Below, piece after piece: positions 439 to 62,407 of a stretch of 64,000 nt of DNA. Source of the stretch: a virus. The stretch covers positions 55,224 to 119,223 of the IMG/VR virus record IMGVR_UViG_3300032893_000008; one strand, given 5' to 3'. The number at the start of each line of letters is the position of its first letter. Position 1 is the first letter of the stretch. The position numbers were made by a program, and so were the translations under genes. The notes under the pieces were generated by a model. It was not told the DNA's origin and did no database searches. It worked only from the letters and a program-made list of their open reading frames with translations.

Positions 439-1560
439 TCAAGCAATTTTACGGCGCAGCTCTTCCAGGGGCTCGCCGAAGAGGTCGAGAAGGAGGCGCC
501 GGAATTCTGGCGTTCCATTCGAATTGTTGTGGAGGATATTCGAAAAAGCAGACACCGAACGCCCTAGATATGCGGCGAGCGTGCCATGGGTAGACGGCAA
601 TCCTTTCTCCCTGGCAAGCTGGAAAATCCGGAACTTTGACGCCCGGCCGCGGGCGCGAACACGGGGAACGGACCGAGATGATTTCGACGTAAAAACCAAT
701 CCGGAATTTGCCAACTCTTCAGAGACGATGGCGTATATTTCCGGATTCATCAGATCGATGGCGGTATCAGCAACGTCATCGAAACTTACGTGAGTGGTAA
801 GATTGATGTCCGTCAGACGGTTGCGGAGGAGAGAAGACAGCTCCTCGCTGCTTCGGACCTTCACGGCGCCACTGGGATCAAGCACCTTGGACTGAAGCGT
901 TCTCTTCAGATCCTTGTTCATACCACCCAAGGCTTCATGAAACTTCCCGATCGCTTCATCGATAGGCATCCCGGGGGAGATCGAATCGATCAGATTCTGG
1001 ATCGTATTCCGGTATCCATCGATATCGACCACGTGCCCGCCGTGACGGGCGGCTGTGTAACTTCGGGATAGCGAGATGAACTTCCGGCGAAGATGGATGT
1101 ATACGAGAGTAGACTCTTTCGCGCACCCCTCCCCGTGGCGAAGATTCTTCTGGATCCAACGGAGCTGCTGAAGGACGAAAATACGACCGTCCTGAATCAG
1201 GTCCTCAACGGACTTGCCGAGACGGCCGATCGAAGCACGAGGATCCAAGGTGGAGCAACTGTTTCCTCCGGCCCAGTAGCGAAGGACGTGATCGTTGATC
1301 ATCTTCTTGATCATCGGATCGTATTTACGAATCTGATCATCCGTTACTAGCTCCGGATTCCCTTTCACTCTCGACTTCGGAGTGTAGGTTTTACCCGGCT
1401 GGAGATGCCCCCACCGTCGCCCGGACTTGATGTCCGATACCATGGGTTGCTGGATGTTGTAACGCTTAGCGATGACCCGCTGCGGGTCTGTGGAACGGAG
1501 GATCTCCAGCGCTTGCTCTTCCGTCAGCTTTTTGCGACGAATGGGGACGTTCTCTTCCAT
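439..1560 (-). CDS. Sigma-70-region-2-like regulator with helix-turn-helix segments
   Basis: A 373-residue protein. Near the N-terminus a helix-turn-helix-like stretch (about residues 27-47, IAKRYNIQQPMVSDIKSG) resembles those in homing-endonuclease-associated DNA binders. Residues about 117-160 (VEDLIQDGRIFVLQQLRW and following) resemble sigma-70 region 2.1-2.2, where cellular sigmas have DLIQEG-type sequence. A second HTH-like segment sits near the C-terminus (GTLAAYLGRSVSAFSNIL). I infer a divergent phage sigma factor or sigma-like regulator; -10 recognition residues cannot be confirmed by eye. I chose the ATG at 1560, 9 bases after the TATCAT hexamer at 1575-1570; the open frame also allows GTG at 1569. 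Candidate reader of the short -10 promoters found throughout the window. Confidence 0.5.
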   Translation of the reverse strand: MEENVPIRRKKLTEEQALEILRSTDPQRVIAKRYNIQQPMVSDIKSGRRWGHLQPGKTYTPKSRVKGNPELVTDDQIRKYDPMIKKMINDHVLRYWAGGNSCSTLDPRASIGRLGKSVEDLIQDGRIFVLQQLRWIQKNLRHGEGCAKESTLVYIHLRRKFISLSRSYTAARHGGHVVDIDGYRNTIQNLIDSISPGMPIDEAIGKFHEALGGMNKDLKRTLQSKVLDPSGAVKVRSSEELSSLLRNRLTDINLTTHVSFDDVADTAIDLMNPEIYAIVSEELANSGLVFTSKSSRSVPRVRARGRASKFRIFQLAREKGLPSTHGTLAAYLGRSVSAFSNILHNNSNGTPEFRRLLLDLFGEPLEELRRKIA

Positions 1561-1569
1561 GTGGGGCAC

Positions 1570-1575
1570 ATGATA
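1570..1575 (-). promoter_or_regulatory. -10-like hexamer for sigma-like gene
   Basis: TGG-TATCAT on the minus strand, 9 bases before the ATG at 1560. It matches the extended -10 pattern seen before many genes here and predicts a leaderless or near-leaderless transcript. Confidence 0.5.
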
Positions 1576-1599
1576 CCAGAGTATCGGATCGATGTCAAG

Positions 1600-3048
1600 T
1601 CACTTTTCGACCACAGCTACTGGCGCGATCTCTTCGAACCATTCCTTGCGCGCATCGCCATGGCGCTTCAAGTGCTGAGCCTGGGGCACATCGATCTGAT
1701 AGTCAATAACCAGGACTTCGTTCTTACGGCCTTCCACTCGCCGAAGGCCACGGCCAAGGTTCTGCATCACCAACCCCTTGGAAGCACCGCCGGCGAGCAG
1801 CATCAAGACATCGACCGGGAGGATATCGGTTCCCTCTCCGATCACAGAAGTTCCGATCAGACATCGAATTTTACCAGCGTTAAAGTCTCGCACGGCTTCG
1901 GAAGGATCCACCCAAGGAGCACCTTCTTCCTGGGCCTTCTCCTTCGCGCGCACGAAGACCGAGCCCTCGATCCGCGATTGAAGTTCGTGACCGTGCTCAC
2001 GTTCCTTAACCAGGATTAACACCTGCTTACCGGCTTTCAGCACGGCCTTCGCCTGAGCAACCACGAGCTTGTTGAGGTAGTCATTTCTGATCACGTGCTC
2101 CTGGAAGGACTTAATCAGGTTCGCCGGCGCGGCGGTCGAGGAGGTGGTGATCCGATAAAGCATGAACCGAGGAGTAGCCAGGAAGCCATCCCTGATGCCC
2201 TCCTGGACGGTGTAGGTATCGATGACCGGGAACGTCGCAGCTTCGATCGCCAAGTCAGCTCCATCGGCCCGGAAGGGAGTAGCGGTAAAGCCGAATCGGT
2301 AGAAGGCGTTGGGAACGAAATCATAGCAGATCTGAGAAACGGTAGCGCAGGGCAAATGATGACACTCATCGAAGATGAGCACCTGACGGTCATCCCAATC
2401 TTTCGGGGTGGAATTCAGGATACTCGGCGCACAAGCGATGGTGATATCACGGATCTTCTTCTTACCGTCCCCATACTGAGATACCCGCGCCGGACCGAAA
2501 AACATCTCGAAACGACGAACGGTCTGCTTCAAGATCGACGTGTTGGGCACCACGAGGAGAGACTTTAGCCCCAATCGCTGAAGAAGCTTCATGATGACGA
2601 CGGTCTTACCAGTGCCGGTGGCAGACTCGATGGTTCCCTGGCCGGCAGCCAGGCAGCGCTCAAACTGACGCGTCTGGTAGTAACGCATCTCCGGCGGGGC
2701 CTGCTCCATCCGGAACCCAGGACCTTGCCGCGGCCGCACCCGAATGTCCTCAACCATCGGAGCCTGAAGCTTTTCACGGACACGATCGAGCAATCCCGTT
2801 GGAAACACCAACGAATCCCCGTCCATGGACGCAAGCGCTACGTGCTGCTGCGCCTGGAGTTGCGCGATGCGCATCGCGAAGTAGTCCGCACCACCGCCAT
2901 AAGCTCGCCTGGCGGCACGCTGCGCCTGTCGGATCTGATAAGATACTGACTTGTCGGTGTAGGTGAGTTCCTTGATGACCTTCGCGGCTTCTTCAGGCGA
3001 GATCCCGCTCACGGTAGACTTGGAATATCCGACACGGATGATGGCCAC
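1600..3048 (-). CDS. Superfamily 2 DNA/RNA helicase (UvsW/type III Res-like)
   Basis: A 482-residue SF2 helicase. Visible motifs in order are Walker A (ATGTGKTVV, about residue 140), Walker B/motif II as DECHH, motif III GFTATPFR, and a C-terminal motif VI QNLGRGLRR. The DECHH form and the C-terminal RecA-like domain are typical of the UvsW/Res-type helicases that phages use for fork reversal, branch migration and the switch from origin- to recombination-dependent replication. The start is GTG at 3048, exactly 6 bases after a TAGAAT hexamer, so translation is predicted to be leaderless. It is the first gene of the leftward unit that also holds the sigma-like and MoxR genes. The call is firm at superfamily level; the precise role is inferred. 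Confidence 0.88.
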   Translation of the reverse strand: MAIIRVGYSKSTVSGISPEEAAKVIKELTYTDKSVSYQIRQAQRAARRAYGGGADYFAMRIAQLQAQQHVALASMDGDSLVFPTGLLDRVREKLQAPMVEDIRVRPRQGPGFRMEQAPPEMRYYQTRQFERCLAAGQGTIESATGTGKTVVIMKLLQRLGLKSLLVVPNTSILKQTVRRFEMFFGPARVSQYGDGKKKIRDITIACAPSILNSTPKDWDDRQVLIFDECHHLPCATVSQICYDFVPNAFYRFGFTATPFRADGADLAIEAATFPVIDTYTVQEGIRDGFLATPRFMLYRITTSSTAAPANLIKSFQEHVIRNDYLNKLVVAQAKAVLKAGKQVLILVKEREHGHELQSRIEGSVFVRAKEKAQEEGAPWVDPSEAVRDFNAGKIRCLIGTSVIGEGTDILPVDVLMLLAGGASKGLVMQNLGRGLRRVEGRKNEVLVIDYQIDVPQAQHLKRHGDARKEWFEEIAPVAVVEK

Positions 3049-3054
3049 GGGGAT

Positions 3055-3060
3055 ATTCTA
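3055..3060 (-). promoter_or_regulatory. Leaderless promoter, SF2 helicase
   Basis: GGG-TAGAAT on the minus strand, 6 bases before the GTG at 3048. It lies back to back with the rightward promoter at 3086, so one 50-base gap serves both directions. Confidence 0.6.
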
Positions 3061-3085
3061 CCCAAACCGAAAACCGTTCAATCGG

Positions 3086-3091
3086 TATAAT
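3086..3091 (+). promoter_or_regulatory. Leaderless promoter of the rightward replication cluster
   Basis: CGG-TATAAT, a perfect -10 consensus, 7 bases before the ATG at 3099 (4 before an in-frame GTG at 3096). This is the start of the long rightward gene block. Confidence 0.65.
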
Positions 3092-7359: not shown

Positions 7360-7365
7360 TAGAAT
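7360..7365 (+). promoter_or_regulatory. Leaderless promoter
   Basis: CTGG-TAGAAT, 7 bases before the GTG at 7373; no Shine-Dalgarno sequence fits between them. Confidence 0.6.
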
Positions 7366-7372: not shown

Positions 7373-7606
7373 GTGTTTAAGAAAGGCGATATCGTCAGAA
7401 TTACGACCCAGAACGCTACCTTGTGGCCTTACTACGGCCAGAAGGGAGAGGTCAGCCGGCCGTCATACAGCGAAGCCAAAAGCGGGACCGTTTATGAGGT
7501 CGAAGTTAAAGACCCCAAGAACGGTCGGGTCGGTCTTCTCCTGGATGAAACAGAAATGGTCCTCTGGAATGGGCTCGATGAAGCGATGAAGGCGAGTAAT
7601 GGGTAA
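7373..7606 (+). CDS. Small SH3/KOW-like protein with GLDEAM tail
   Basis: A 77-residue protein starting at GTG, 7 bases after the TAGAAT hexamer. The sequence KKGDIVRITTQN...YYGQKGEVSRPS...VYEVEV looks like a short SH3/KOW-type beta barrel. It ends in NGLDEAMKASNG, a variant of the GLD.AM C-terminal motif shared with at least five other small proteins in this window (26604, 50390, 50635, 51156 and 59508 starts). Function unknown; the shared tail suggests a common docking or localisation signal. It overlaps the methyltransferase-like gene by 8 bases. Confidence 0.65.
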   Translation: MFKKGDIVRITTQNATLWPYYGQKGEVSRPSYSEAKSGTVYEVEVKDPKNGRVGLLLDETEMVLWNGLDEAMKASNG

Positions 7607-8453
7607 GAAAGTCTGGTGCGAGTTTCACAAAATTGAGCATGACCTCGATTTAGTTGAAAGATTCGCAGCAAAAACGGGCGAAAAGAAAGGTGTTTGTCCG
7701 ATCACGGCTGCTACAGAAGTCCAGACGGGTGCTTACATTCTTGAGCCTGAATACGCTATCGTCCACAAATCAGCGACTGAAGCCCGCTGGCCCCAGAACG
7801 TTGATCTCTTGATCACCAAGCTCCCCGCCACCGAGAAGGAAGGCTACACCCAAGGGTTGGTAGCTTTCATCGCCGGCCAGACGTTCAAGCAGATGAACCC
7901 GAACTCCCTCGCCTTTGTGATCGTATCGAGCTACAAGGAACAGAAGGAACGCCCCTACCTGATCGTGGAGATCTTCAAGTCCGCGGGCTTCCAGTTCATC
8001 GACACGATTATCTGGGAGAAAAACAAATACACTCCCACCCAAGGCGGTAAGCGCCTTAACAACGTCTACGATTTCGTCTTCCTCTTCGCCAAGGGTGACA
8101 ACTATCACCTGGATCGTGAGGCGATTGCATACCTCCGTCGTGATGGGCACGGAGAATACCTGTGCGCCGGCAACGTATGGCGCATCAAGGTCGACGAAAA
8201 AGATTCGGTTCCTCAGGAACTCGCAGAAGTGGCGATCAAGCTATCGAATCTGCTGCCGAATTCCACGATCGTAGATCCGTTCATGGACACCGGCGCGGTG
8301 CTACGAGCAGCACTTCACACTCAACACTCGTTCTGGGGATGCGAGTCTAGTCCCCTCAAGTTCAAGAGGTGCCAGAAAGTAGTGCGTGACTACCGCACTG
8401 CTCTCTTGGCCGGCAAAGACCCCGAATCGATTCTCAACGGAGAGACAGCGTGA
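7599..8453 (+). CDS. DNA methyltransferase-like protein with degenerate catalytic motif
   Basis: A 284-residue protein with the architecture of beta-class N4-cytosine/N6-adenine methyltransferases. Near the C-terminus VDPFMDTGAVLRAA matches the SAM-binding 'DPF.G.G' motif I, followed by FWGCESSPLKFKRC as in 'GIE....Y...A'. The catalytic (D/S/T)PP(Y/F) motif, expected after the VDLLIT strand (about residues 68-73), reads KLPATEKEGY instead. The upstream WCEFH and C residues might bind zinc. It may be inactive, have altered specificity, or act as an RNA/DNA-binding decoy. It overlaps groEL by 4 bases. Confidence 0.6.
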   Translation: MGKKVWCEFHKIEHDLDLVERFAAKTGEKKGVCPITAATEVQTGAYILEPEYAIVHKSATEARWPQNVDLLITKLPATEKEGYTQGLVAFIAGQTFKQMNPNSLAFVIVSSYKEQKERPYLIVEIFKSAGFQFIDTIIWEKNKYTPTQGGKRLNNVYDFVFLFAKGDNYHLDREAIAYLRRDGHGEYLCAGNVWRIKVDEKDSVPQELAEVAIKLSNLLPNSTIVDPFMDTGAVLRAALHTQHSFWGCESSPLKFKRCQKVVRDYRTALLAGKDPESILNGETA

Positions 8454-10183
8454 ACGGATTCTCGATCAAGGCAAAAGGCAAGGAAATTCGTCTCAAGGGC
8501 CCTGCCCTTAACGATGCCATTCTTCAGACGATGCACACCCTATCCCAGATCGTCGGTTCGACGCTCGGGCCGGGCGGTAACGTCGTGCTCCTGGAGCGCA
8601 TTGGACTGCCGCCTCTGATCACTAAGGACGGCGTCACGGTAGCGTCGAACGTCGCCTTCAAGGACGCAACGCAATACGTCCTCGGCGAGGCAGCGAAGGA
8701 AGCTTCGCTCCGCACGAACGTCGAGGCTGGCGACGGCACGACGACCGTCATCGTCCTGGCGGAAGCCCTGACCCGCTACGGCCTAGAGTATCTTTCCAAG
8801 CATCCCAACAAATCGCCGCAGGAAATCTGCCGCGAACTGGATGCAGTTGTTGAGAAGTGCGTGGCTCGACTACAGAAGGCGGCGAAGAAGGTCACCACCA
8901 AGCAAGATCTGCACAAGGTTGCACTGGTCTCGGCGAACTTCGATGAGTCGATCGCCGGCGCCGTCATCGAGGCGCTCGATCAGGTTGGTAACGACGGCAC
9001 GATCATCACCGAAGAAGGTTCTAGCCGGCACACGACAGTCGAGATGCAGGAAGGCTTCCCGGTTCGCAAGGGCCTAAGCACTTTCGGCGCTGTCCAGGAG
9101 ATTTTCATCAACGATCCCCAGGCGCAGGAATGCGTCCTGCAGAACCCGATGGTCCTGCTTTACGACGGTGATCTGACGGATCCCATCAACCTCGCGAATT
9201 ACCTGCAGAAGTGTTACACGAAGATGATGGAGGAGAAGCAGTCCGCTAGTCCGATCATCGTCGTAGCTCACAAGTTTTCTCCCCAGGTGCTTCGCCTGAT
9301 GGCCGAGAACTTCGCGGTCAACCGCGCGCAGATCATCCCCATGGAGACCATGGCTTCGGCGCAGCCGATGTCGCGACATCACTTCCTGCACGACATGGCG
9401 GCCTATCTCGGCGCCGACGTTCTGGATCCGATCGCCCATCAGCTCGATGTCTCTACGCCCGAAGCGCTCGGTGGTTGCGGCCGCGCTCGCATCGGACGCT
9501 ACCAGTCGGTGCTTTTCGACCCCCTGGATGGCACCGAGCCCCTAGTGGAAAAGCGCATTACCGAGCTGAAGGGCCAGCTGGAGAACGCAGAGTCAGAATA
9601 CGACGCCGAGATCATCAAGGAGCGCATCGGCCATCTCCTGGGTGGTATCGCTACGATTTACGTAGGCGGCTCTTCTGATCTAGAGATCAAAGAAAAGAAG
9701 CACCGTATCGAGGACGCTATTTGCGCCACTCGTTCCGCGGTCGAGCAGGGGATCGTCCCCGGCGGCGGCGCCATGTTTCTGGCACTCGCCGATAGCCTCC
9801 TGGACGAATCCTTCGTTACCGAAGTGGAATCGAGTGACATTCTCGTTCAGGCGCTTCAGATTCCTTTCCAGCGGATTCTTCTCAACGTAGGGGAATCCCG
9901 GCAGAAAATCGAAGAAGCGACCCAGAAAATCATTGATTCCAGGAATAGAATGGGAGTCCCGAAGCTCGTCTACGACGCGCTTCATCACACCTATGCCAAG
10001 CCCTTCAAGGCCGGCATCGTGGATCCCGTGAAAGTAACAGTCGCAACGCTTCAGAATGCGATGTCGATCGCTCAGATGCTTTTCACCCTGGGCGGTGCGG
10101 TCATTCTCCCGCGCGATCTGGAAGAGGAACGCCAGGCGGAGCTGCAGGCCCAGGCAGTGGCAGCCCAGATGCAGGGCGCATGA
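8450..10183 (+). CDS. groEL: Phage GroEL chaperonin
   Basis: A 577-residue HSP60 subunit, longer than E. coli GroEL (548). ATP-site motifs are kept: STLGPGGN near residue 40, ITKDGVTVA, GDGTTTVIVLAEAL near residue 90, and the hydrolysis-linked aspartate within HRIEDAICATRSAVEQG followed by VPGGG. The C-terminal GGM tail of bacterial GroEL is missing; it ends in a Gln/Ala-rich tail. No GroES-like gene is recognised in the window, as in phage EL and OBP chaperonins. It probably folds phage structural or replication proteins. The start is GTG overlapping the previous stop; the next gene overlaps by ATGA. Confidence 0.95.
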   Translation: MNGFSIKAKGKEIRLKGPALNDAILQTMHTLSQIVGSTLGPGGNVVLLERIGLPPLITKDGVTVASNVAFKDATQYVLGEAAKEASLRTNVEAGDGTTTVIVLAEALTRYGLEYLSKHPNKSPQEICRELDAVVEKCVARLQKAAKKVTTKQDLHKVALVSANFDESIAGAVIEALDQVGNDGTIITEEGSSRHTTVEMQEGFPVRKGLSTFGAVQEIFINDPQAQECVLQNPMVLLYDGDLTDPINLANYLQKCYTKMMEEKQSASPIIVVAHKFSPQVLRLMAENFAVNRAQIIPMETMASAQPMSRHHFLHDMAAYLGADVLDPIAHQLDVSTPEALGGCGRARIGRYQSVLFDPLDGTEPLVEKRITELKGQLENAESEYDAEIIKERIGHLLGGIATIYVGGSSDLEIKEKKHRIEDAICATRSAVEQGIVPGGGAMFLALADSLLDESFVTEVESSDILVQALQIPFQRILLNVGESRQKIEEATQKIIDSRNRMGVPKLVYDALHHTYAKPFKAGIVDPVKVTVATLQNAMSIAQMLFTLGGAVILPRDLEEERQAELQAQAVAAQMQGA

Positions 10184-10557
10184 TCATCTGGGTGCCGTTC
10201 TCGATGGCGGTCGCCGAAGACGGCACCGCTTCGATCGCCGGCATTCCGGTAGAGCATCTGATTCGAGAATTCTCGGTCCAGGTCGATAACGACAAATTCG
10301 AAGCTAAGTTCCGATTGGATGAGGATAATTCCAAGGTTTCTATCCCGGAGAAATGGGCTAACATCTGGCGCCGCCTGGAAGATCGGACGGCTCCGGATGA
10401 GGAGCCTATCATCCGGATCAGAAACGCGCGATATATTTACGCGAATGTGGACACTTGGACGATTTGCGTAGATCACGAGTCGGAAATTGCTGTTCCGGAT
10501 GGAATCACAGTCGCCCTGAACTCGCTTTCGGCTGACGCGGTAAAATCTAAGGCATGA
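10180..10557 (+). CDS. Unknown protein coupled to groEL
   Basis: A 125-residue acidic protein with alternating beta-strand-like segments (FSVQVDNDKFEAKFRL, PIIRIRNARYIYANVDTWTICVD). The start codon overlaps the groEL stop (ATGA), so its expression is coupled to the chaperonin. I looked for GroES features (a mobile loop with GGI and a beta-barrel roof) and do not see them, although a highly diverged co-chaperonin would fit the position. No family recognised. Confidence 0.6.
   Translation: MIIWVPFSMAVAEDGTASIAGIPVEHLIREFSVQVDNDKFEAKFRLDEDNSKVSIPEKWANIWRRLEDRTAPDEEPIIRIRNARYIYANVDTWTICVDHESEIAVPDGITVALNSLSADAVKSKA
10541..10546 (+). promoter_or_regulatory. Leaderless promoter inside end of upstream gene
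   Basis: GCGG-TAAAAT, 7 bases before the ATG at 10554. It lies within the last codons of the previous gene. Confidence 0.55.
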
Positions 10558-10760
10558 AGTCAAAGCCAAAGACTCGTGATTCTGAAACGAGAGAAGTCTA
10601 TGAAATCGTCAAGCGCCCGGGGAAAGCAGCATTCCTCTTCCGTATCCCTTCGCACACTCTCCGCCTGCGCAAGGATGGAAATGGTGTGGTCCAGGTGATC
10701 GGGGGCGAAGTAGTAGCTCGTCTGGACTGGGAAGAGCTTGCCGTGATCAAGAGGGGCTAA
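10554..10760 (+). CDS. Small basic protein, unknown
   Basis: A 68-residue, Lys/Arg-rich protein (start KSKPKTRDSETREVYEIV, then FLFRIPSHTLRLRKDG and VIGGEVVARLDWEEL) with a likely small beta fold. Its ATG overlaps the previous stop and also has its own leaderless-type promoter at 10541, so it may be made from two transcripts. Function not recognised. Confidence 0.6.
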   Translation: MKSKPKTRDSETREVYEIVKRPGKAAFLFRIPSHTLRLRKDGNGVVQVIGGEVVARLDWEELAVIKRG

Positions 10761-12300: not shown

Positions 12301-14210
12301 AATTCAAGTCCTTCTACGCTGAGAATTTCATCACCTTCCCGGTCATCGAGCTGGAGTTTGATTCCAGTGATCGCGGGCTGACGCTCGTCGACGGCTGGAA
12401 CCACGACCAGGGGCAGGCTAACGGCGCCGGCAAGTCAGTGCTCTTCAACTCGATCGCGTTCGCGGTCTACGGGAAGACTGCTACGGACGTGAACCTCGCG
12501 GATCTGGTCCCGGAATGGGGTGGCACCCTCAAGACCGTCGTGATGGTAGAGACGGCTGCCGGAATGCTCATCATCGAGCGCACGCGCAAGCCGAATGCAG
12601 TCAAGCTCTTCGTCAACAACGTCGAGTTCAAAGGCACCGCAGAATCCGTCGAGAAACGCATCCTGGAACTGGTAGGGCTCACCTTCGAACAGTTTCTCCA
12701 GGTGGCCTACTTCTACCAGGGGGCTCGGGATCGGTTCGTCGACGTCAACGACACGGCCAAGAAGTCGTTCCTGGCTTCCGTCCTGGGACTCGACAAATGT
12801 GAAATCGCCTACACCAAGGCTCACGAGAAGCTGAAGACCGCTGAGTCCGCAAAAGCGACCCTCGATGGTAAGGTTTCGACGCTCAAGAGCGTGCTCCAGG
12901 GGCAGCAGGCTGCTCACGAGAACGCTCTACGAACCCTGGATGCATTCATAGAGGCTCGGCCGGCGAAGGAAGCTGAGATACGCGGGCGCTACGCTTCGGA
13001 TGACAAGGAAACGCAGCTCCAGAAGCGTCTGGAAGCCGCCGAAGCGGCCAAGAAGGTCGCCGAAGGCGAAGCTGAGGAAGCATTGAAGATTGTCCTCCCC
13101 GATCGAGCCAAGCTCGTTGAGCAGCAGGAGCTTGGCATTAAGGCCGGCCAGATGGTCGCGCGCCTACGGGCAGAGATCGAGTCGTCAGAGCGTGAGCTGC
13201 GAACTTTGCGCAGGGACCAGGAGAAACTCGGCGGCACTTCCGCGGCGCCGGCGAATTGCTATGCCTGTGGACAAGCCCTGCCGCAGGATCCGTCCGCGCA
13301 CGAACGTATCCACAAGGAGATCGAGGCTAAGAAAGCGGAAATCGAGACCGTTACCGCCAAGATCGTCGAGAACCAGGGGAAGCTAGCCAAGGCTGAAACG
13401 CTTGCGCGGAAGTGCGATGGCGCTCGCCAGCAAATCACCGATCTGAATGCCCAGATCGCCGTGATTCAGAACAAGAGTTTCCAGGTTCAGCTGAAGATTC
13501 AGGAAGTGAACGCAGCAAAAGCAGCTCTCGCCGGCGTGGAGCAGCTGAAGGCGCAGCGCGAACAGGCCATGAAGAACGAGCTGGCTAGCCTGAACGATCG
13601 CGAAGAATCCCTGATCGATCAGTCTTCGGCCGCTGGCGCGATGGCGGCAACGACTCAAAACAAGCTCGATGAAGCTTCGACGCAGCTGAACAAGGCCAAG
13701 GACGAGATTGCCTATCTGCAGGAAACCAAACGAATCTTCTCCCCAATTGGACTCCGGGCGCACGTCGTCGATGGCGTCGTTTCCGAGCTGAACGAACGGA
13801 TTGAGCACTACCTGAGCGAACTGTTTTCGGGCCAGATGCGATTCCACTACGACCTGGACGAATCCGGGAAGCTGATCGGCAAGCTTTTCTTCGCCGGCCG
13901 TGAGCGATCGTCCCTAGCTACGCTCTCCGGTGGTCAGCGGCAGCGTGTGCGACTTGCGGTCGATCTGGCACTCTCCGACGTCGTAGCCAACCGTCTGGCC
14001 GTGAAGACGAATGTGATGTTCCTGGACGAGGTTACGGACGGCATGGATTCCATCGGGCGTGAAGGTCTAATGGCGATCTTGAGCGAGCTAGAGCGAAGTC
14101 GAGATGCTATTTTTGTGGCCGATCACGAATCGGAGTTCAAGTCTCGGTTTTCTCGAAGCATTTGGCTTGAACTGAAAAAAGGGCAAACGTCGATGTCCCG
14201 TGGGGTATGA
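12297..14210 (+). CDS. SbcC/Rad50/T4 gp46-like recombination ATPase
   Basis: A 637-residue SMC-type ATPase. The Walker A region is GWNHDQGQANGAGKSVLFNS (about 33-52); long coiled coils flank a zinc-hook motif CYACGQ near residue 320; the ABC signature LSGGQRQRVRLAVDLALS and Walker B NVMFLDEVTDGMD are near the C-terminus. It is the ATPase half of a Mre11/Rad50-type nuclease that resects DNA ends for recombination-dependent replication. No adjacent gp47/SbcD gene is present; the only calcineurin-like phosphoesterase in the window (48490-49116) is of another subfamily. Start is a rare TTG overlapping the previous stop. Shorter than SbcC and near gp46 in size. Confidence 0.92.
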   Translation: MKFKSFYAENFITFPVIELEFDSSDRGLTLVDGWNHDQGQANGAGKSVLFNSIAFAVYGKTATDVNLADLVPEWGGTLKTVVMVETAAGMLIIERTRKPNAVKLFVNNVEFKGTAESVEKRILELVGLTFEQFLQVAYFYQGARDRFVDVNDTAKKSFLASVLGLDKCEIAYTKAHEKLKTAESAKATLDGKVSTLKSVLQGQQAAHENALRTLDAFIEARPAKEAEIRGRYASDDKETQLQKRLEAAEAAKKVAEGEAEEALKIVLPDRAKLVEQQELGIKAGQMVARLRAEIESSERELRTLRRDQEKLGGTSAAPANCYACGQALPQDPSAHERIHKEIEAKKAEIETVTAKIVENQGKLAKAETLARKCDGARQQITDLNAQIAVIQNKSFQVQLKIQEVNAAKAALAGVEQLKAQREQAMKNELASLNDREESLIDQSSAAGAMAATTQNKLDEASTQLNKAKDEIAYLQETKRIFSPIGLRAHVVDGVVSELNERIEHYLSELFSGQMRFHYDLDESGKLIGKLFFAGRERSSLATLSGGQRQRVRLAVDLALSDVVANRLAVKTNVMFLDEVTDGMDSIGREGLMAILSELERSRDAIFVADHESEFKSRFSRSIWLELKKGQTSMSRGV

Positions 14211-14211
14211 T
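14206..14211 (+). promoter_or_regulatory. Leaderless promoter, RuvC-like gene
   Basis: GGGG-TATGAT, 6 bases before the ATG at 14218. It overlaps the stop of the SbcC-like gene. Confidence 0.6.
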
Positions 14212-16934: not shown

Positions 16935-16960
16935 TAAAACTTCATGCCTTGCGGTATTAT
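16935..16960 (+). promoter_or_regulatory. Leaderless promoter with upstream TAAAAC box
   Basis: TAAAAC (16935) then 14 bases then TATTAT (16955-16960), 6 bases before the ATG at 16967. The TAAAAC box recurs at similar spacing before three other promoters. Confidence 0.55.
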
Positions 16961-19547: not shown

Positions 19548-20149
19548 AGCATCCGTTCAATGACGAAATGACCGGCTGGGACTGGCTCTTTAACTCGATC
19601 CTGTGCCGGCTCTTCAAGTATCGCGATATCGTCAAGACCGAAGAGAGCGAAGAGAGTATTGGCAATGGAGTTGCCTTGTATCATTCGGGGCCTACGCTCT
19701 ACCTGCGCCGTTTCTACCTCTGGTCCAAGGGGAACAAGGAAGACGGCTACAAAGGAGCGATCTTCCTTCACAACATCCGACGGTCTGACAACGATCGCCA
19801 TATGCACGATCACCCCTGGGATTTCACGAGCTACGTTCTCGCTGGCGGCTACTATGAGCAGCTCCCGGGGGCTGAAGTCGTAGACCTGGCGGGTAACGTT
19901 AGTAAGCCCGGGCGCAAAGTCTACCCCGGCATGGAACTGCATAACCCCGCCGAACACCTTCACAAAGTCGAACTTTGGCGCAATCCCGATGGAAGTCCGA
20001 TGCGCGCCTGGACGATCGTCAAGGCCGGACCCGCTCGCCGCATTTGGGGCTTCCAGACCGAGGAAGGGTGGGTCGACTACAAGACCTACTTGGGGATCCC
20101 TCAGGAAACCCCCGAGACGAACGGCGAAGACATCATCCCGAAGACCTAA
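19544..20149 (+). CDS. Cupin-fold protein
   Basis: A 201-residue protein with both cupin motifs: HMHDHPWDFTSYVLAGGYYEQ (metal-binding H.H plus the conserved glycines) and, about 50 residues later, NPAEHLHKVEL. Thus one bicupin-like metal site is probably intact. Such phage cupins are often linked to base or sugar modification or to dioxygenase chemistry; the substrate is not predictable. Coupled to thyX by a 4-base overlap, which may hint at a pyrimidine-related role. Confidence 0.7.
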   Translation: MKHPFNDEMTGWDWLFNSILCRLFKYRDIVKTEESEESIGNGVALYHSGPTLYLRRFYLWSKGNKEDGYKGAIFLHNIRRSDNDRHMHDHPWDFTSYVLAGGYYEQLPGAEVVDLAGNVSKPGRKVYPGMELHNPAEHLHKVELWRNPDGSPMRAWTIVKAGPARRIWGFQTEEGWVDYKTYLGIPQETPETNGEDIIPKT

Positions 20150-20171
20150 AACTCTCACGCTGCGGTATCAT
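20147..20171 (+). promoter_or_regulatory. Promoter with TAAAAC box and short leader
   Basis: TAAAAC (20147), 13 bases, then TATCAT (20166-20171). Unlike most promoters here, the start codon (20201) lies 29 bases downstream with an AGGAG ribosome site in the leader. Confidence 0.5.
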
Positions 20172-25596: not shown

Positions 25597-25602
25597 ATTT
25601 TA
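25597..25602 (-). promoter_or_regulatory. Leaderless promoter, tailspike
   Basis: CCTGG-TAAAAT on the minus strand, 6 bases before the ATG at 25590. Confidence 0.6.
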
Positions 25603-25627
25603 CCAGGATCAGTCCCCGGGGACGCGG

Positions 25628-25633
25628 TAGAAT
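25628..25633 (+). promoter_or_regulatory. Leaderless promoter of plus-strand island
   Basis: GCGG-TAGAAT, 6 bases before the GTG at 25640; back to back with the tailspike promoter. Confidence 0.6.
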
Positions 25634-30201: not shown

Positions 30202-30207
30202 ATTTTA
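30202..30207 (-). promoter_or_regulatory. Leaderless promoter, small tail protein
   Basis: AGG-TAAAAT on the minus strand, 6 bases before the ATG at 30195. Confidence 0.6.
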
Positions 30208-36044: not shown

Positions 36045-36049
36045 GACCG

Positions 36050-38521
36050 TTATTGTAGCGTAAACGAGAGGGGAATGATGTCCGAACCGCTCGCAACCTT
36101 CACGGTCATGTTCAGGCGGACTGCATCAGCATCGAAAGTGATGGTCATGCTCGGGATTGATTCGAATCGATCGTCCGAAAGGATCGAGTTCTCGATGATC
36201 GACCGGATCGTGTTCCCGGATCGTTCAACCGTCCCGACTTGCAACCCAAGCCCCTTATCCTGGTGATGCAGCAATGACCCCTTTTCGATCGTAAGTCCTA
36301 GTTTTACCGCTTGAATTGCGTTCGTCACTCCCGTAGCGAGCTGGAAGTCACCAGAGGCGCTCAGGGCGATGTCGAAATTCGGTGTCAAGAGAAGATCCAC
36401 CCCCATGGCTTTCTGTTGACGATTGAGCCGCTGGGTCGCCGGGATGACGCGAGTATCCGGAACGGCATCCCCTGGTCGTTTGCCGGGCGTCGGAATCACG
36501 ATCATTTTCGAGGAGTTAACGGTGTTGGGCGCATACCCCTTTGCTTTGGCATTCTTACTGACCGTGTAATTCCCGAGATCGGGATTCCCGTCCACCTGGA
36601 TCGACCAAGATCCCGACGGGAGCTTGCGAATCCCAGTAACATATCGATGAGAAGCCGGCATCGTCAGGGACGAGATGAAAATTTCCTGTCCGACGAAAAA
36701 CTGGCCGGCATTTGCTACCAGGAAACTGTTGCCAGAACCACTGGAGGAGAGGAAGACTTCGAAGCCAGTCTCGTCGATGTAGGGCGGCTGCAGGCCATTC
36801 GCGATCGCGATTTCCAGCCAGCGGTCCGGGCTGCCGAGGTAGGTAGCAGCCAGACTTTCCAGAGTGCCACCGGCCGGGAAGGGCACCGGGAACCCTGTGC
36901 TAGAGGAAATGATGGAGACGTCAGGGTTGTTAGCATTGGACTGTGCCCGAAGGAATGGATCGCTCGTCCTGACGCCAGCGAGATCCCGCGTGGCCGAAAG
37001 GGTGTCGGTGACCGCCACCAGGGAGGAAAGCTGCTGGAGCGTCAGGTAGTCTTCGGGCTCCGGATCACGAAGCTTTGGTCCCGGGGTGCGGCCACTGATT
37101 GCGTCGACCGTGGCGTCGTTGAGTCCCAGGAAGTCCGAGAACGCATCCCGGGCGGCTTCAAATCGAGCGCGCATCGCATCCAGGTCGCCAACAGTAAGTT
37201 GTGACGCTTTCGTGAGAGCATTCGAAACTACGGCCTGTTCGTCCGCAGACAAGTGAATCCGGGAGATCGGAATCTGACCCAAAAGATCGACCATACGCAA
37301 ACGCTGTTCCAGGGTGCGTAGCGGATTGGAGAAGTCTCGCGCCTGTTGATTGGCGTAGTTGTTGGAGTTCGGGTCGCCCGCTACCGGCTGTCTCGTGGGG
37401 TTCGTAGCGTCGCTGACGCTCGTAGTCAAGACTCCGATCAGCGTAGGATCTCCTGTAGCTTCTGCAAGCTGCAGGAGGGAATCCCTCAGCTCATTGCCCT
37501 TGAGGGCCACTAGCCCCGTGGGCCCGTCGATATCCGCCCAGGACTGGATCACGCCATTGATGCCTTTGATCAACAGAGTGGCGGAGTTGACGGCGCCGAT
37601 GAGGTTGTCGAAGTCTGCGATCGCACTTCGAAGAACGTCCTGCGCGGCCGCGATCGTAGATCGCGCCGCCAAGAGAGCGTTCATTGCTTTCGTCAGTTCG
37701 CTCGGCGAAGGAGAGCCGCTGAAGCCCGTAGCCGATACGCCCCTCAGACCCTGCGAATGAGCGAGATCCCACGCCTTCAGGCTGATGCGGTAGCGGGTAA
37801 TGTGCGGATCGTTGGCGTCTTTGGTGGTGTCGAACGTCTGGGGTGTGACGCCGTAGTTAACGCCATTTTTGCGATCCAGAAAGACCAGGCGAGCTAGGCG
37901 TGAATCAACATCCCCGTCAACGCTACGCTTCATCTCCGCATAAGCAACGAGGTAGTTCAGGAAATCATTGATCTTTTTGTGACCAAGTTCCTCTAGGTCC
38001 GCGTTTGCGATACCGCTTAGTAGTTCTGGCGACAGCCCCGGGATCTGTGCGCCCGCGCGAATGGTAGTTCCGAGGGCGCCGAGGGTGTTGACGAGCGCGC
38101 TCGATGCCGAAAGGAGTCCGGGGTAGCTGAATTGATTCTGCGGAGACAAAGACCGGAGGTCCTGGTTCGTTACCACTTGGGAAGAGAGGACTTTAGCCTT
38201 CCGGGCGGATACGCCGAAGGTGCCGCTGATTGCGATTTGACGGAAAACTACGCCATTATTCTCCTCCACGATTCCGTCGGAAGAGGCCGTATTGGATATG
38301 GCAAACGGAATAGAAACCTGGACCGACTGCGGATTGACCGGGAGAACAAATTCAGAAAAATCAGGATGTTCGTTGGTAATGTCTATTTCGCCGGTCTCTG
38401 GGTCAGCCATGACGACCTTAAACGAATAGAGCCCGCCGGCGTTCAGATCCCAAGTGTCCGTCGGAGCTGAATACAGCTTCCGCGGTAGTTTCTCGGGTGA
38501 CGTGAACTTAGCGACCGACAT
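36050..38521 (-). CDS. Baseplate protein: LysM-like domain plus gp25-like wedge domain
   Basis: 823 residues. The N-terminal part (residues about 1-250) is a beta-rich tail domain; a helical middle follows (about 280-520); residues about 555-610 contain a LysM-like stretch (PAGGTLESLAATYLGSPDRWLEIAIANGL..PYID); the C-terminal about 120 residues (FDIALSASGDFQLATGVTNAIQAVKLGLTIEKGSLLHH) match gp25/gpW wedge proteins. The fusion therefore combines a tail-hub peptidoglycan/neighbour-binding module with the wedge that nucleates sheath assembly. The start lies 6 bases after TAAAAT at 38533-38528. Confidence 0.78.
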   Translation of the reverse strand: MSVAKFTSPEKLPRKLYSAPTDTWDLNAGGLYSFKVVMADPETGEIDITNEHPDFSEFVLPVNPQSVQVSIPFAISNTASSDGIVEENNGVVFRQIAISGTFGVSARKAKVLSSQVVTNQDLRSLSPQNQFSYPGLLSASSALVNTLGALGTTIRAGAQIPGLSPELLSGIANADLEELGHKKINDFLNYLVAYAEMKRSVDGDVDSRLARLVFLDRKNGVNYGVTPQTFDTTKDANDPHITRYRISLKAWDLAHSQGLRGVSATGFSGSPSPSELTKAMNALLAARSTIAAAQDVLRSAIADFDNLIGAVNSATLLIKGINGVIQSWADIDGPTGLVALKGNELRDSLLQLAEATGDPTLIGVLTTSVSDATNPTRQPVAGDPNSNNYANQQARDFSNPLRTLEQRLRMVDLLGQIPISRIHLSADEQAVVSNALTKASQLTVGDLDAMRARFEAARDAFSDFLGLNDATVDAISGRTPGPKLRDPEPEDYLTLQQLSSLVAVTDTLSATRDLAGVRTSDPFLRAQSNANNPDVSIISSSTGFPVPFPAGGTLESLAATYLGSPDRWLEIAIANGLQPPYIDETGFEVFLSSSGSGNSFLVANAGQFFVGQEIFISSLTMPASHRYVTGIRKLPSGSWSIQVDGNPDLGNYTVSKNAKAKGYAPNTVNSSKMIVIPTPGKRPGDAVPDTRVIPATQRLNRQQKAMGVDLLLTPNFDIALSASGDFQLATGVTNAIQAVKLGLTIEKGSLLHHQDKGLGLQVGTVERSGNTIRSIIENSILSDDRFESIPSMTITFDADAVRLNMTVKVASGSDIIPLSFTLQ
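36052..36057 (-). promoter_or_regulatory. Leaderless promoter, baseplate J
   Basis: GC-TACAAT on the minus strand, 7 bases before the ATG at 36044, inside the end of the upstream gene. Confidence 0.5.
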
Positions 38522-38527: not shown

Positions 38528-38533
38528 ATTTTA
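38528..38533 (-). promoter_or_regulatory. Leaderless promoter, LysM-gp25 baseplate gene
   Basis: GGGG-TAAAAT on the minus strand, 6 bases before the ATG at 38521. Confidence 0.6.
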
Positions 38534-45022: not shown

Positions 45023-45028
45023 ATTTTA
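45023..45028 (-). promoter_or_regulatory. Leaderless promoter of chaperone/tape-measure unit
   Basis: CCTGG-TAAAAT on the minus strand, 6 bases before the ATG at 45016. Confidence 0.62.
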
Positions 45029-46862: not shown

Positions 46863-46887
46863 ATAATACCCCCGTGATTCAGTTTTA
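46863..46887 (-). promoter_or_regulatory. Promoter of lipoprotein/SLOG unit, with TAAAAC box
   Basis: On the minus strand TAAAAC (46887-46882), 13 bases, then GGG-TATTAT (46868-46863). The leader before ATG 46841 is about 20 bases and holds a Shine-Dalgarno sequence. Confidence 0.5.
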
Positions 46888-49358: not shown

Positions 49359-49364
49359 ATGATA
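49359..49364 (-). promoter_or_regulatory. Leaderless promoter of phosphoesterase/metzincin unit
   Basis: GCGG-TATCAT on the minus strand, 6 bases before the ATG at 49352. Confidence 0.6.
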
Positions 49365-49380
49365 CCGCCGCCGGCGAGTT

Positions 49381-49890: not shown

Positions 49891-49896
49891 ATTCTA
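49891..49896 (-). promoter_or_regulatory. Leaderless promoter, second metalloprotease
   Basis: GGG-TAGAAT on the minus strand, 6 bases before the GTG at 49884. Confidence 0.6.
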
Positions 49897-50346: not shown

Positions 50347-50352
50347 ATTTTA
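50347..50352 (-). promoter_or_regulatory. Leaderless promoter, tube-like paralogue
   Basis: AGG-TAAAAT on the minus strand, 7 bases before the GTG at 50339. Confidence 0.58.
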
Positions 50353-50377
50353 CCTGGACTTTGTCCGTTGGGGATGG

Positions 50378-50383
50378 TAGGAT
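50378..50383 (+). promoter_or_regulatory. Leaderless promoter
   Basis: TGG-TAGGAT, 6 bases before the ATG at 50390; divergent from the promoter at 50347. Confidence 0.58.
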
Positions 50384-51162: not shown

Positions 51163-51168
51163 ATTTTA
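51163..51168 (-). promoter_or_regulatory. Leaderless promoter
   Basis: AGC-TAAAAT on the minus strand, 6 bases before the ATG at 51156. It abuts the -35 (TTGACG at 51171) of the rightward promoter. Confidence 0.55.
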
Positions 51169-51170
51169 GC

Positions 51171-51199
51171 TTGACGGGGATCGCTCCGGGCGGTAATAT
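51171..51199 (+). promoter_or_regulatory. Full sigma-70-like promoter, leaderless
   Basis: TTGACG (51171-51176), 17 bases, CGG-TAATAT (51194-51199), then 6 bases to the ATG at 51206. This is the best evidence that the short hexamers are true -10 elements. Confidence 0.7.
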
Positions 51200-52418: not shown

Positions 52419-52490
52419 CTCCCGAGGCACGAATCGAACGTGCGTCTGCCGGTTCAAAGCCGGCGGTCCTAGCCACTGAACGACTCGGAA
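52419..52490 (-). tRNA. tRNA-Gln (anticodon UUG)
   Basis: 72 nt, read leftward. Acceptor TTCCGAG pairs with CTCGGGA; the anticodon stem GCCGG/CCGGC encloses CTTTGAA (anticodon TTG); T loop TTCGATT. U1 and UUG support glutamine. CCA is not encoded. Its 5' end abuts the next tRNA without any spacer. Confidence 0.88.
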
Positions 52491-52561
52491 CTAGCGAGGA
52501 AGGGGTCGAACCTTCACTTTCGCGCTCAGAACGCGACGTGCTACCGCTACACTACCCGCCA
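52491..52561 (-). tRNA. tRNA-Gln (anticodon CUG)
   Basis: 71 nt. Acceptor TGGCGGG pairs with CTCGCTA (two G-U); anticodon stem TCGCG/CGCGA encloses TTCTGAG (anticodon CTG); T arm GAAGG-TTCGACC-CCTTC. U1 again fits glutamine. No CCA; directly adjacent to both neighbours. Confidence 0.85.
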
Positions 52562-52634
52562 TGGCTTCGTAGGGAATCGCACCCTCTTCCCCGGTTTAAA
52601 AGACCGGTGCTCATCTGACTAAAGCTTCGAAGCC
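52562..52634 (-). tRNA. tRNA-Lys (anticodon UUU)
   Basis: 73 nt. Acceptor GGCTTCG/CGAAGCC; anticodon stem CCGGT/ACCGG encloses CTTTTAA (anticodon TTT). The T stem has one mismatch (GAGGG with CCCTA). Discriminator A, no CCA. Ends exactly where the previous tRNA begins. Confidence 0.85.
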
Positions 52635-52636
52635 GA

Positions 52637-52707
52637 TCTGGGTGGCGAGAATCGAACTCGCTCTTTCGGGTTCCAGGCCCGGAATGCAACCACTACACCA
52701 CACCCAG
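52637..52707 (-). tRNA. tRNA, probably Pro (anticodon UGG)
   Basis: 71 nt. Acceptor CTGGGTG/CACCCAG; T arm GCGAG-TTCGATT-CTCGC. The anticodon arm CCGGG-CCTGGAA-CCCGA reads UGG at 34-36, and the C1-G72 pair fits proline, but residue 33 is C rather than U and the stem has one mismatch. A GGA reading (Ser) is the alternative. Two bases from the Lys tRNA. Confidence 0.75.
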
Positions 52708-54754: not shown

Positions 54755-54760
54755 ATCCTA
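54755..54760 (-). promoter_or_regulatory. Leaderless promoter, GIY-YIG-like gene
   Basis: AGG-TAGGAT on the minus strand, 6 bases before the GTG at 54748. It may also feed the tube gene downstream. Confidence 0.55.
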
Positions 54761-57942: not shown

Positions 57943-57989
57943 CGTTTTCCTCAGTCCGGATGGATTTTACCAGTCCCCGGATCGCATTC

Positions 57990-58301: not shown

Positions 58302-58307
58302 AGTCTA
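58302..58307 (-). promoter_or_regulatory. Leaderless promoter
   Basis: CCTGG-TAGACT on the minus strand, 6 bases before the ATG at 58295. Confidence 0.52.
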
Positions 58308-59237: not shown

Positions 59238-59243
59238 ATTATA
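59238..59243 (-). promoter_or_regulatory. Leaderless promoter, neck-like gene
   Basis: ATGC-TATAAT (perfect -10 consensus) on the minus strand, 6 bases before the ATG at 59231. Confidence 0.65.
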
Positions 59244-60484: not shown

Positions 60485-60510
60485 ATTTTACCAGGGGGGT
60501 GAGTGTTTTA
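60485..60510 (-). promoter_or_regulatory. Leaderless promoter with TAAAAC box, connector gene
   Basis: On the minus strand TAAAAC (60510-60505), 14 bases, TGG-TAAAAT (60490-60485), 6 bases before the GTG at 60478. Confidence 0.6.
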
Positions 60511-60515
60511 GGGAG

Positions 60516-60521
60516 TATCAT
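60516..60521 (+). promoter_or_regulatory. Promoter of nucleotidyltransferase-like gene
   Basis: GAG-TATCAT, inside a small inverted repeat AGGGA...TCCCT. An ATG (60527) lies 5 bases on, and a second ATG (60539) has a perfect GGAGGT Shine-Dalgarno sequence, so either leaderless or led translation is possible. Confidence 0.5.
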
Positions 60522-60538
60522 TCCCTATGGAGGTAACA

Positions 60539-61331: not shown

Positions 61332-61340
61332 TTTTTCTTC

Positions 61341-61369
61341 TTGACTACCCCTACTAGGGGTGCTACAAC
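61341..61369 (+). promoter_or_regulatory. Promoter with operator-like palindrome, DUF262 gene
   Basis: TTGACT (61341-61346), 17 bases, TACAAC (61364-61369), then 6 bases (GGAGTC) to the ATG at 61376. The spacer contains the perfect palindrome ACCCCTA-C-TAGGGGT (61347-61361), a likely repressor site. Confidence 0.65.
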
Positions 61370-61375
61370 GGAGTC

Positions 61376-62407
61376 ATGAAGAAGAACACGAATCCCGATC
61401 CCGTCACCTACGTCGTCTCCGCCGCCAAGGGCACCCGCGGGGGCATCACCGCTCTCTTCCTGGTCAAATCTCGCACTATCGTCGGTGCGCGTGCGGAAGC
61501 CAAAGCCCGTCTCGACCGTTCCGGCGTGGTTTATCGCCGGTTTGATGTCGTGCCCGAAAACGAGTCGTCGAAGACGCCCGAGCAGCGCGCGGCCAATCGC
61601 GTCGCTTTCGGCGTTCCGGGCGACGACTGGTTCATCGACGAGGACGACGAGCTGCACGCCAAGCTGGGCGTCAGCAGCGACCGCCTCACCAACTGCCCGG
61701 AGCCGGGGCGCACTTTCGCCATCGGCGACAAGCTCTACGACGGCAAGACCGTCACGAAGGTCTTCAAGAGCGGCAAGTTCTACGAGGTCTCCTGGACCTA
61801 CAAACGGAACAAGGCGTATTCCGCGGAGCTGGAAACAGTCACCGAGAACGTCCTCCGCGCCTGGTATGAACTCTACCCGATGGAATCTTTCCCCAAGGAG
61901 GCGCCGATCAACGGGGACAATTTCATCGCCCGGATCTCCCAGAGCATGCAGTCCAGTCTCGATATCGCCTGGAACATGGTGCTTCGGGACGGCGTGAACA
62001 TGAATCCCGACTACCAGCGGGGATCTGTCTGGGGGCTGGAGGACAAGGTCAAACTGATCGAGTCTCTCTTCCAGCACCGTGAGATCGGGACGTTCGTCTT
62101 CCGGCGGCTTGGCATGGAAGGATGGAAGAATGGCGTCAGCTACGAGATCGTCGACGGCAAACAGCGCCTGGAGGCGATCGTCGACTTCCGCCTCGGGAAA
62201 TTCAAGGTCTACGGCCGCTACTACCACGAGATGAATCCCGAGGACCTTCACACGCTTCGCAACAACATGTTCCGCTACTCGGTCATCAACGAGGACGTTC
62301 CGCTCAAGAAGATCATCGAGATGTTCGTGCTCCTCAACACGACTGGCAAGCCCATGGACCCGGCGGTCATCGAGAAGGCGAAGGAAATGCTCAAGGAGCT
62401 GCCGTGA
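61376..62407 (+). CDS. DUF262/ParB-like protein
   Basis: 343 residues. The C-terminal half has the DUF262 pattern: MNPDYQRGSVWGLEDKVKLIESLFQ, IGTFVFRR, then YEIVDGKQRLEAIVDFRLGKF, where (I/V)DG.QR is the conserved ParB/sulfiredoxin-superfamily motif. The N-terminal about 180 residues are a separate domain of unknown fold. DUF262 domains occur in GmrSD-type modification-dependent nucleases, where this domain is GmrS/NTP-dependent, and in toxin or defence proteins; no HNH or GmrD domain is visible. Own strong promoter with operator suggests tight control. Confidence 0.72.
   Translation: MKKNTNPDPVTYVVSAAKGTRGGITALFLVKSRTIVGARAEAKARLDRSGVVYRRFDVVPENESSKTPEQRAANRVAFGVPGDDWFIDEDDELHAKLGVSSDRLTNCPEPGRTFAIGDKLYDGKTVTKVFKSGKFYEVSWTYKRNKAYSAELETVTENVLRAWYELYPMESFPKEAPINGDNFIARISQSMQSSLDIAWNMVLRDGVNMNPDYQRGSVWGLEDKVKLIESLFQHREIGTFVFRRLGMEGWKNGVSYEIVDGKQRLEAIVDFRLGKFKVYGRYYHEMNPEDLHTLRNNMFRYSVINEDVPLKKIIEMFVLLNTTGKPMDPAVIEKAKEMLKELP

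What the first reader, a model, noticed from the sequence alone, without database searches (positions are those of the whole stretch)
1560..61376. Phage-wide leaderless promoter code: TGG-TAnnAT 6-7 bases before the start codon
At least 20 genes on both strands have a -10-like hexamer (TAAAAT, TAGAAT, TATAAT, TATCAT and similar, usually preceded by GG or TGG) whose last base is 6-7 bases from ATG or GTG: starts at 3048, 3099, 7373, 10554, 14218, 16967, 25590, 25640, 30195, 36044, 38521, 45016, 49352, 49884, 50339, 50390, 51156, 51206, 54748, 58295, 59231, 60478 and 61376. A -10 there puts the transcript start on the start codon, so these mRNAs should lack leaders. Two sites also have TTGAC(G/T) at 17 bases. 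Leaderless initiation is known as common in Deinococcus-Thermus and Actinobacteria; seeing it so uniform in a phage is unusual and also corrects many start-codon choices.
Basis: partly seen in the sequence, partly recalled or inferred. Interest (0 to 1): 0.85.

Follow-up and report, generated by a model that had tools for sequence, protein, structure and literature searches.

The report
Phage promoters starting mRNAs at AUG
About a quarter of this phage's genes have a promoter placed so exactly that the messenger RNA should begin at the start codon itself, with no leader; this is known from a Thermus phage, but here it comes with a new upstream box and with rigidly spaced back-to-back promoter pairs.

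Summary
In the 119,223-base record holding the window, GGTANNAT ends exactly 6 bases before ATG/GTG at 22 sites (about 0.6 expected; reversed-pattern control 0). It also appears at starts called without using the motif (14 of 115; antisense 0). All 23 listed sites check out, plus 10 more, 9 of them in the left half. The base before these starts is C or T in 30 of 33 (42 of 94 elsewhere), a transcription-start signature, and Shine-Dalgarno motifs are depleted. So I accept predicted leaderless mRNAs. 'Phage-wide' and 'TGG' overstate it: about 33 of roughly 130 genes, consensus (n)GGTAnnAT, with many other genes SD-led. Only 4 of 33 starts differ from the longest ORF. The kind is known: Thermus phage phiYS40 makes leaderless middle/late mRNAs and its annotated starts show the same 6-base geometry. 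New here: (1) a TAAAACT box 12-13 bp upstream of the -10, where T4 has its MotA box; (2) six divergent promoter pairs with a fixed 25-26 bp gap between -10 boxes; (3) a phage sigma-factor gene that itself has a leaderless promoter. Orthologues in several distant relatives are SD-led, while close relatives keep leaderless starts at two genes. Host unknown; no RNA data.

The parts
3055..3060 (-). -10 TAGAAT of leaderless gene starting GTG 3048 (ResIII/SNF2-type helicase)
3086..3091 (+). -10 TATAAT, spacing 7 to ATG 3099; divergent partner of 3055-3060, 25-bp gap
7360..7365 (+). -10 TAGAAT, spacing 7 to GTG 7373
10541..10546 (+). -10 TAAAAT, spacing 7 to ATG 10554 (inside the end of the upstream gene)
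14206..14211 (+). -10 TATGAT, spacing 6 to ATG 14218 (longest ORF starts at 14200)
16935..16941 (+). TAAAACT box of the promoter for ATG 16967
16955..16960 (+). -10 TATTAT, spacing 6 to ATG 16967 (24-codon ORF)
20147..20153 (+). TAAAACT box of a leadered promoter (-10 at 20166-20171; 23-nt leader with SD before ATG 20201)
25597..25602 (-). -10 TAAAAT, spacing 6 to ATG 25590 (942-aa tail-fibre-like)
25628..25633 (+). -10 TAGAAT, spacing 6 to GTG 25640; divergent partner, 25-bp gap
30202..30207 (-). -10 TAAAAT, spacing 6 to ATG 30195
36052..36057 (-). -10 TACAAT, spacing 7 to ATG 36044 (1944 aa); orthologues in L181-L183 and L186 are SD-led
38528..38533 (-). -10 TAAAAT, spacing 6 to ATG 38521 (baseplate)
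45023..45028 (-). -10 TAAAAT, spacing 6 to ATG 45016; CTAAAAA variant of the upstream box; orthologues SD-led
46863..46868 (-). -10 TATTAT of a leadered promoter with TAAAACT box 46881-46887; 15-nt leader before ATG 46841
49359..49364 (-). -10 TATCAT, spacing 6 to ATG 49352; TAAAACT box at 49377-49383
49891..49896 (-). -10 TAGAAT, spacing 6 to GTG 49884
50347..50352 (-). -10 TAAAAT, spacing 7 to GTG 50339; L005 orthologue also leaderless
50378..50383 (+). -10 TAGGAT, spacing 6 to ATG 50390; divergent partner, 25-bp gap
51163..51168 (-). -10 TAAAAT, spacing 6 to ATG 51156
51171..51176 (+). -35 TTGACG, 17-bp spacer to the -10 at 51194
51194..51199 (+). -10 TAATAT, spacing 6 to ATG 51206; divergent partner, 25-bp gap
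54755..54760 (-). -10 TAGGAT, spacing 6 to GTG 54748
57964..57969 (-). -10 TAAAAT of a leadered promoter: 15-nt leader with SD before tail sheath ATG 57942 (SD-led in relatives too)
58302..58307 (-). -10 TAGACT, spacing 6 to ATG 58295
59238..59243 (-). -10 TATAAT, spacing 6 to ATG 59231; orthologues in L007 and L180 also leaderless
60485..60490 (-). -10 TAAAAT, spacing 6 to GTG 60478; TAAAACA box at 60504-60510
60516..60521 (+). -10 TATCAT, spacing 5 to ATG 60527 (weak; a second ATG with SD lies 12 nt on); divergent partner, 25-bp gap
61341..61346 (+). -35 TTGACT, 17-bp spacer to the -10 at 61364
61364..61369 (+). -10-like TACAAC, spacing 6 to ATG 61376
414..419 (-). -10 TAGGAT of a leadered promoter with -35 TTGACC; 15-nt leader with SD before GTG 392

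Best explanation
These are sigma-70-family promoters of the extended -10 kind (GGTAnnAT) placed so that transcription starts on the first base of the start codon. The mRNAs therefore have no leader and must be initiated by ribosomes recognising a 5'-terminal AUG/GUG. The same core promoter also drives a smaller set of genes with short leaders (13-23 nt) carrying a Shine-Dalgarno site. Upstream, the promoters fall into at least three groups: a -35 TTGAC/TTGAAC at a 17-bp spacer; a TAAAACT box ending 12-13 bp from the -10 hexamer; and neither. I infer that the first group is read by host sigma-A RNA polymerase and that the TAAAACT group needs a phage factor, either a MotA-like activator or the phage's own sigma factor. 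Divergent leaderless genes share a fixed interlocked promoter pair at which only one polymerase can bind at a time. Shown by sequence: positions, enrichment, -1/+1 signature, SD depletion, upstream elements, pair spacing, partial conservation, the sigma gene. Inferred: transcript 5' ends, translation mode, mutual exclusion, and which factor reads which box.
For: 22 GGTANNAT-N6-RTG vs 0.6 expected, Poisson p about 2e-26. 14 of 115 motif-blind gene starts, 0 antisense. Codon after the motif is ATG 13, GTG 9, TTG 1, CTG 0, fitting a purine +1; -1 is C/T in 30 of 33 vs 42 of 94, p = 1.7e-6; SD motif in 3 of 33 vs 36 of 94, p = 0.002. TTGAC at the 17-bp spacer 6 times among 63 sites; TAAAAC at 18-20 from the -10 nine times vs 0.023 expected. 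Orthologues: 50339 in L005, 59231 in L007 and L180 leaderless, while the sheath is SD-led throughout. phiYS40, with experimentally leaderless transcripts, shows TANNNT ending 6 nt upstream at 15 of 107 annotated starts, neighbouring spacings mostly 1-7. Phage sigma factor: Pfam Sigma70_r2 1.4e-6, SigA in PDB 2e-8.
Against: No RNA 5'-end data. Host unknown, so its tolerance of leaderless mRNA is untested. A minority of the 33 sites have spacing 5 or 7, so a few transcripts may start one base off. Orthologues of several leaderless genes are SD-led in more distant relatives (45016, 50339 and 36044 in L181-L186), so the mode is not ancient. The sigma fold model is of low confidence (pLDDT 45), so region 4 is not verified.
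Confidence: 0.88

Rival explanations
1. The hexamer is a true -10, but the core GGTAnnAT is read by the phage-encoded sigma factor rather than host sigma-A; the whole set is a phage-sigma regulon.
For: A sigma-70-family gene lies at record 35385-36059; the GG flank is very consistent; no bacterial group stood out in the TAAAACT composite scan.
Against: The same core occurs with canonical TTGAC at 17 bp, typical of primary sigma; the sigma gene itself uses this promoter type, so something else must read it first.
Confidence: 0.25
2. TAAAACT is a displaced -35 box read by sigma region 4 (host alternative sigma or phage sigma), not an activator site.
For: Spacing to the -10 is tight (18-20 nt) and it occurs where TTGAC is absent.
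Against: The gap to the -10 is 12-13 bp, far from the 17 of sigma-70 promoters but equal to the MotA-box gap in T4.
Confidence: 0.35
3. The motif reflects composition or an upstream coding/translation signal rather than a promoter.
For: None found beyond the general AT-richness of intergenic DNA.
Against: Exact spacing, no antisense signal, 0 in the backwards control, -35 elements, and the same core upstream of SD-led starts with 13-23 nt leaders, independent of the start codon.
Confidence: 0.02
4. Transcripts carry very short leaders (1-5 nt) rather than none.
For: Some sites have spacing 7; the large gene at record 10642 and the gene at record 44350 have predicted 3-4 nt leaders.
Against: The dominant spacing is exactly 6 and the -1 pyrimidine sits directly before the start codon.
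Confidence: 0.1

Closest known systems
Thermus thermophilus phage phiYS40 leaderless middle/late genes (Sevostyanova et al. 2007, as cited in PMC3594737 and PMC4842269)
   Same: Extended -10 promoters directly before ORFs giving leaderless mRNAs; TANNNT ends 6 nt before annotated starts; contractile-tailed phage with a detectably related portal protein.
   Different: phiYS40 is about 33% GC with a Thermus host; this phage is 57% GC with host unknown. A TAAAACT box was not looked for in phiYS40; no peak at the 25-bp divergent gap was seen there.
TANNNT leaderless genes of Deinococcus-Thermus and Actinobacteria (PMC3160421, PMC12340547)
   Same: -10-like motif about 12 bp upstream of the start codon, used beside SD-led genes.
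   Different: Here GG-flanked and in a phage; host group not shown.
T4 middle promoters (MotA box plus -10; PMC2988021)
   Same: A box other than a -35, 12 +/- 1 bp upstream of a good -10 that is often an extended -10.
   Different: The box is TAAAACT, not wwwTGCTTtA; no MotA or AsiA homologue was found; T4 middle mRNAs were not described as leaderless in what I read.
Bacterial bidirectional promoters (PMC12825309, PMC10268837)
   Same: Divergent start sites from one promoter region, where one polymerase binding excludes the other.
   Different: Known pairs share a -10 with start sites 18, 10 or 23 bp apart; here two separate -10 boxes with predicted start sites 49-51 bp apart.

Membership tests
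Leaderless genes with TA-like (-10) signal | TANNNT about 10-12 bp upstream of the start codon, enriched over background | tested here: met
Leaderless genes with TA-like (-10) signal | No Shine-Dalgarno site at those starts | tested here: met
   depleted: 3 of 33 vs 36 of 94
Leaderless genes with TA-like (-10) signal | Mapped transcript 5' end at the start codon | not testable with these tools
   no RNA data
phiYS40-like leaderless phage strategy | Extended -10 placed for +1 = start codon at many phage genes | tested here: met
phiYS40-like leaderless phage strategy | Temporal (middle/late) use and change of IF2/IF3 in the host | not testable with these tools
   host unknown
T4-type middle promoters | Box 12 +/- 1 bp upstream of the -10 in place of a -35 | tested here: met
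   TAAAACT ends 12-13 bp upstream of the -10 in most cases, 11 in one
T4-type middle promoters | MotA-box consensus wwwTGCTTtA | tested here: not met
   the box is TAAAACT
T4-type middle promoters | MotA and AsiA encoded | tested here: inconclusive
   none seen in Pfam scans of most proteins, but only 25 of 26 families were listed for one batch
Bidirectional promoters sharing a -10 | Start sites 7-25 bp apart on opposite strands | tested here: not met
   predicted 49-51 bp

The most novel reading that the evidence does not exclude
A phage lineage converted SD-led genes to leaderless ones by placing a uniform promoter module directly on start codons. The module has a phage-specific TAAAACT activator box and a fixed 25-bp interlocked divergent form that works as a one-polymerase switch between two leaderless genes.
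Probability: 0.35. Interest if true: 0.7.

Novelty: new variant of a known kind. Interest (0 to 1): 0.52.

Why it matters
It gives a sequence-only case in which transcription start, translation start and promoter class can be read together from one motif, in an uncultured phage. The close relatives with leaderless orthologues and the distant ones with SD-led orthologues make it a direct test case of how a phage switches initiation mode, perhaps with a change of host. The fixed divergent spacing is a testable rule for compact two-way promoters.

Tried and rejected
Host identification failed: megablast of the first 25 kb to known phages gave no match; a tail-sheath alignment scan of bacterial genomes gave nothing; a scan of bacterial genomes for the composite TAAAACT...GGTATNAT...ATG gave 86 single hits scattered over many phyla with no group standing out, so likely chance. 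The composite scan of virus contigs gave 63 single hits; the 17 source records checked had at most 3 GGTANNAT-N6-RTG sites each. RNR- and GroEL-based relatives (L006, L010-L016) do not share the code, probably because those genes move between phages. The idea that the 25-bp divergent pair is conserved in L005 was rejected: its three matches do not flank divergent gene starts. The sigma-factor fold model was too poor to search. A TAAAACT match at record 14577 sits in a terminator-like hairpin and was not counted as a promoter box.
Full report
What was checked. The window is bases 55224-119223 of a 119,223-base virus record. The phage is a contractile-tailed one: tail sheath, baseplate, portal, terminase and head protease are recognisable, with RNR, a GroEL-like protein, SbcC and helicases. 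Its nearest named relatives by protein are Myxococcus phage Mx1 (27-35% identity over terminase, baseplate and sheath) and, more weakly, SPO1-like and Thermus phages. The host is unknown.

The observation. All listed sites are present. Over the record, GGTANNAT ends exactly 6 bases before ATG or GTG at 22 of 63 sites, against about 0.6 in simulated sequence. The window gives 14 and the left half 8. Reading the pattern backwards gives 0. With gene starts chosen by coding score alone, TANNAT sits at spacing 6 in 14 of 115 genes, and never at that place in the antisense control. A curated list has 33 leaderless-type starts in the record: 24 in the window, including 60527 added by me, and 9 in the left half.

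Why leaderless. A -10 hexamer ending at -7 places +1 on the start codon. Independent support: the base at -1 is C or T in 30 of 33, against 42 of 94 other starts (p = 1.7e-6). The codon after GGTANNAT-N6 is ATG or GTG 22 times and TTG or CTG once. SD motifs are depleted, 3 of 33 against 36 of 94. The -1 base was not used in choosing the sites. The same core promoter also occurs upstream of SD-led genes with predicted leaders of 13-23 nt, as at the tail sheath gene (15 nt) and the gene at 392 (15 nt). So the -10 element sets the transcript start, and the start codon is either at +1 or behind a minimal SD leader.

The phage is not uniformly leaderless: about 33 of roughly 130 genes are, and many others carry SD motifs. 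The flank is GG; TGG precedes only a minority. Only 4 of 33 leaderless starts differ from the longest ORF, so few annotations change.

New observations. (a) Upstream box. TAAAAC(T) begins 18-20 bases before the -10 hexamer at nine GGTANNAT sites, against 0.02 expected. The box ends 12-13 bp from the hexamer at most of them, 11 bp at one. About a third of the 29 TAAAAC sites in the record lie at this distance from a -10. T4's MotA box lies 12 +/- 1 bp from its -10 (PMC2988021). The position matches; the sequence does not. A separate set has TTGAC at a 17-bp spacer. (b) Divergent pairs. Five divergent -10 pairs are separated by exactly 25 bp and a sixth by 26, against 0.3 expected per spacing; the N25 peak has Poisson p of 2.5e-5 before correction for the 80 spacings tried, and the face-to-face and tandem controls show no such peak. 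Both members precede start codons in all six; in the sixth (record 10652) one side has a predicted 3-nt leader. A simple reading, which is inference: 2 (GG) + 6 (-35) + 9 + 6 (-35) + 2 (GG) = 25, the tightest packing with no shared bases. Known bidirectional promoters have start sites 18, 10 or 23 bp apart with a shared -10 (PMC12825309, PMC10268837). (c) Sigma factor. The record encodes a 224-aa sigma-70-family protein (Pfam Sigma70_r2 1.4e-6, SigA in PDB 2e-8) whose own start has a leaderless promoter (record 36059). Its fold model is too poor to use.

Evolution. In the closest relatives found (sheath about 55% identical), the orthologue of gene 59231 has a leaderless-type promoter in L007 and L180, and that of 50339 in L005. 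In more distant relatives (L181-L186) orthologues of 36044, 45016 and 50339 have SD sites instead; in L005 and L009 the 45016 orthologue is also SD-led. The sheath is SD-led throughout. The leaderless mode therefore looks derived within a small clade; sample sizes are small, and orthology versus paralogy is unresolved for 50339, which has paralogues.

Comparison with what is known. TA-like signals near start codons marking leaderless genes are established in bacteria, at highest frequency in Deinococcus-Thermus, with Actinobacteria, Aquificae, delta-Proteobacteria and Acidobacteria also notable (PMC3160421; PMC12340547). In phages, phiYS40 makes most of its middle/late mRNAs without leaders (PMC3594737), and an extended -10 TGnTA motif is reported for it (PMC4842269). 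The original phiYS40 paper was not available to me. I reproduced the geometry on 100 kb of phiYS40: TANNNT ends 6 nt before 15 of 107 annotated starts, with neighbouring spacings mostly 1-7. So leaderless phage expression is not new. The upstream box, the rigid divergent pairs and the strength of the signal at 57% GC are the new variant.

Limits. No RNA evidence, no host, a home-made gene caller, and E-values of relatives computed on small sets. The record may be incomplete. Statistics for the TAAAACT box and divergent pairs were computed after noticing them, so the p-values are optimistic; the TAAAACT margin is large enough to survive generous correction, while that of the pairs would drop to roughly 0.002 after correcting for the spacings tried.

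Noticed in passing
L003:16385-17059 (record 35385-36059, - strand; outside the window): Phage sigma-70-family gene whose own start codon has a leaderless-type promoter with a TAAACTT variant box; no relative found among 50,697 phage records by tblastn.
   Followed up: partly
window 3055-3091, 25597-25633, 50347-50383, 51163-51199, 60485-60521; record 10652-10689: Back-to-back -10 boxes separated by exactly 25 bp (26 at record 10652), giving predicted start sites about 50 bp apart.
   Followed up: yes
record 14577 (- strand): A TAAAACT match inside a terminator-like hairpin (CCCCTAGgtaaaaCTAGGGGCTTTT) just upstream of a leaderless GTG at 14532.
   Followed up: no
window 8450-10183 (+): A 577-aa GroEL-like chaperonin; viral-contig relatives found were only 28-30% identical.
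   Followed up: no
window 50390-50638, 50635-50922, 50872-51156, 7373-7606: Several small proteins look alike (G-D-I-V-R-like start motif, 'GLD.AM' near the end); possibly a paralogous family, judged by eye only.
   Followed up: no
L003:10579-11547, L003:5100-5837: RNA ligase (Pfam RNA_ligase 3e-31) and dCMP deaminase; a NADAR-domain protein is also encoded in the left half.
   Followed up: no
window 52419-52707 (-): Three tRNA genes (Gln TTG, Gln CTG, Pro TGG).
   Followed up: no
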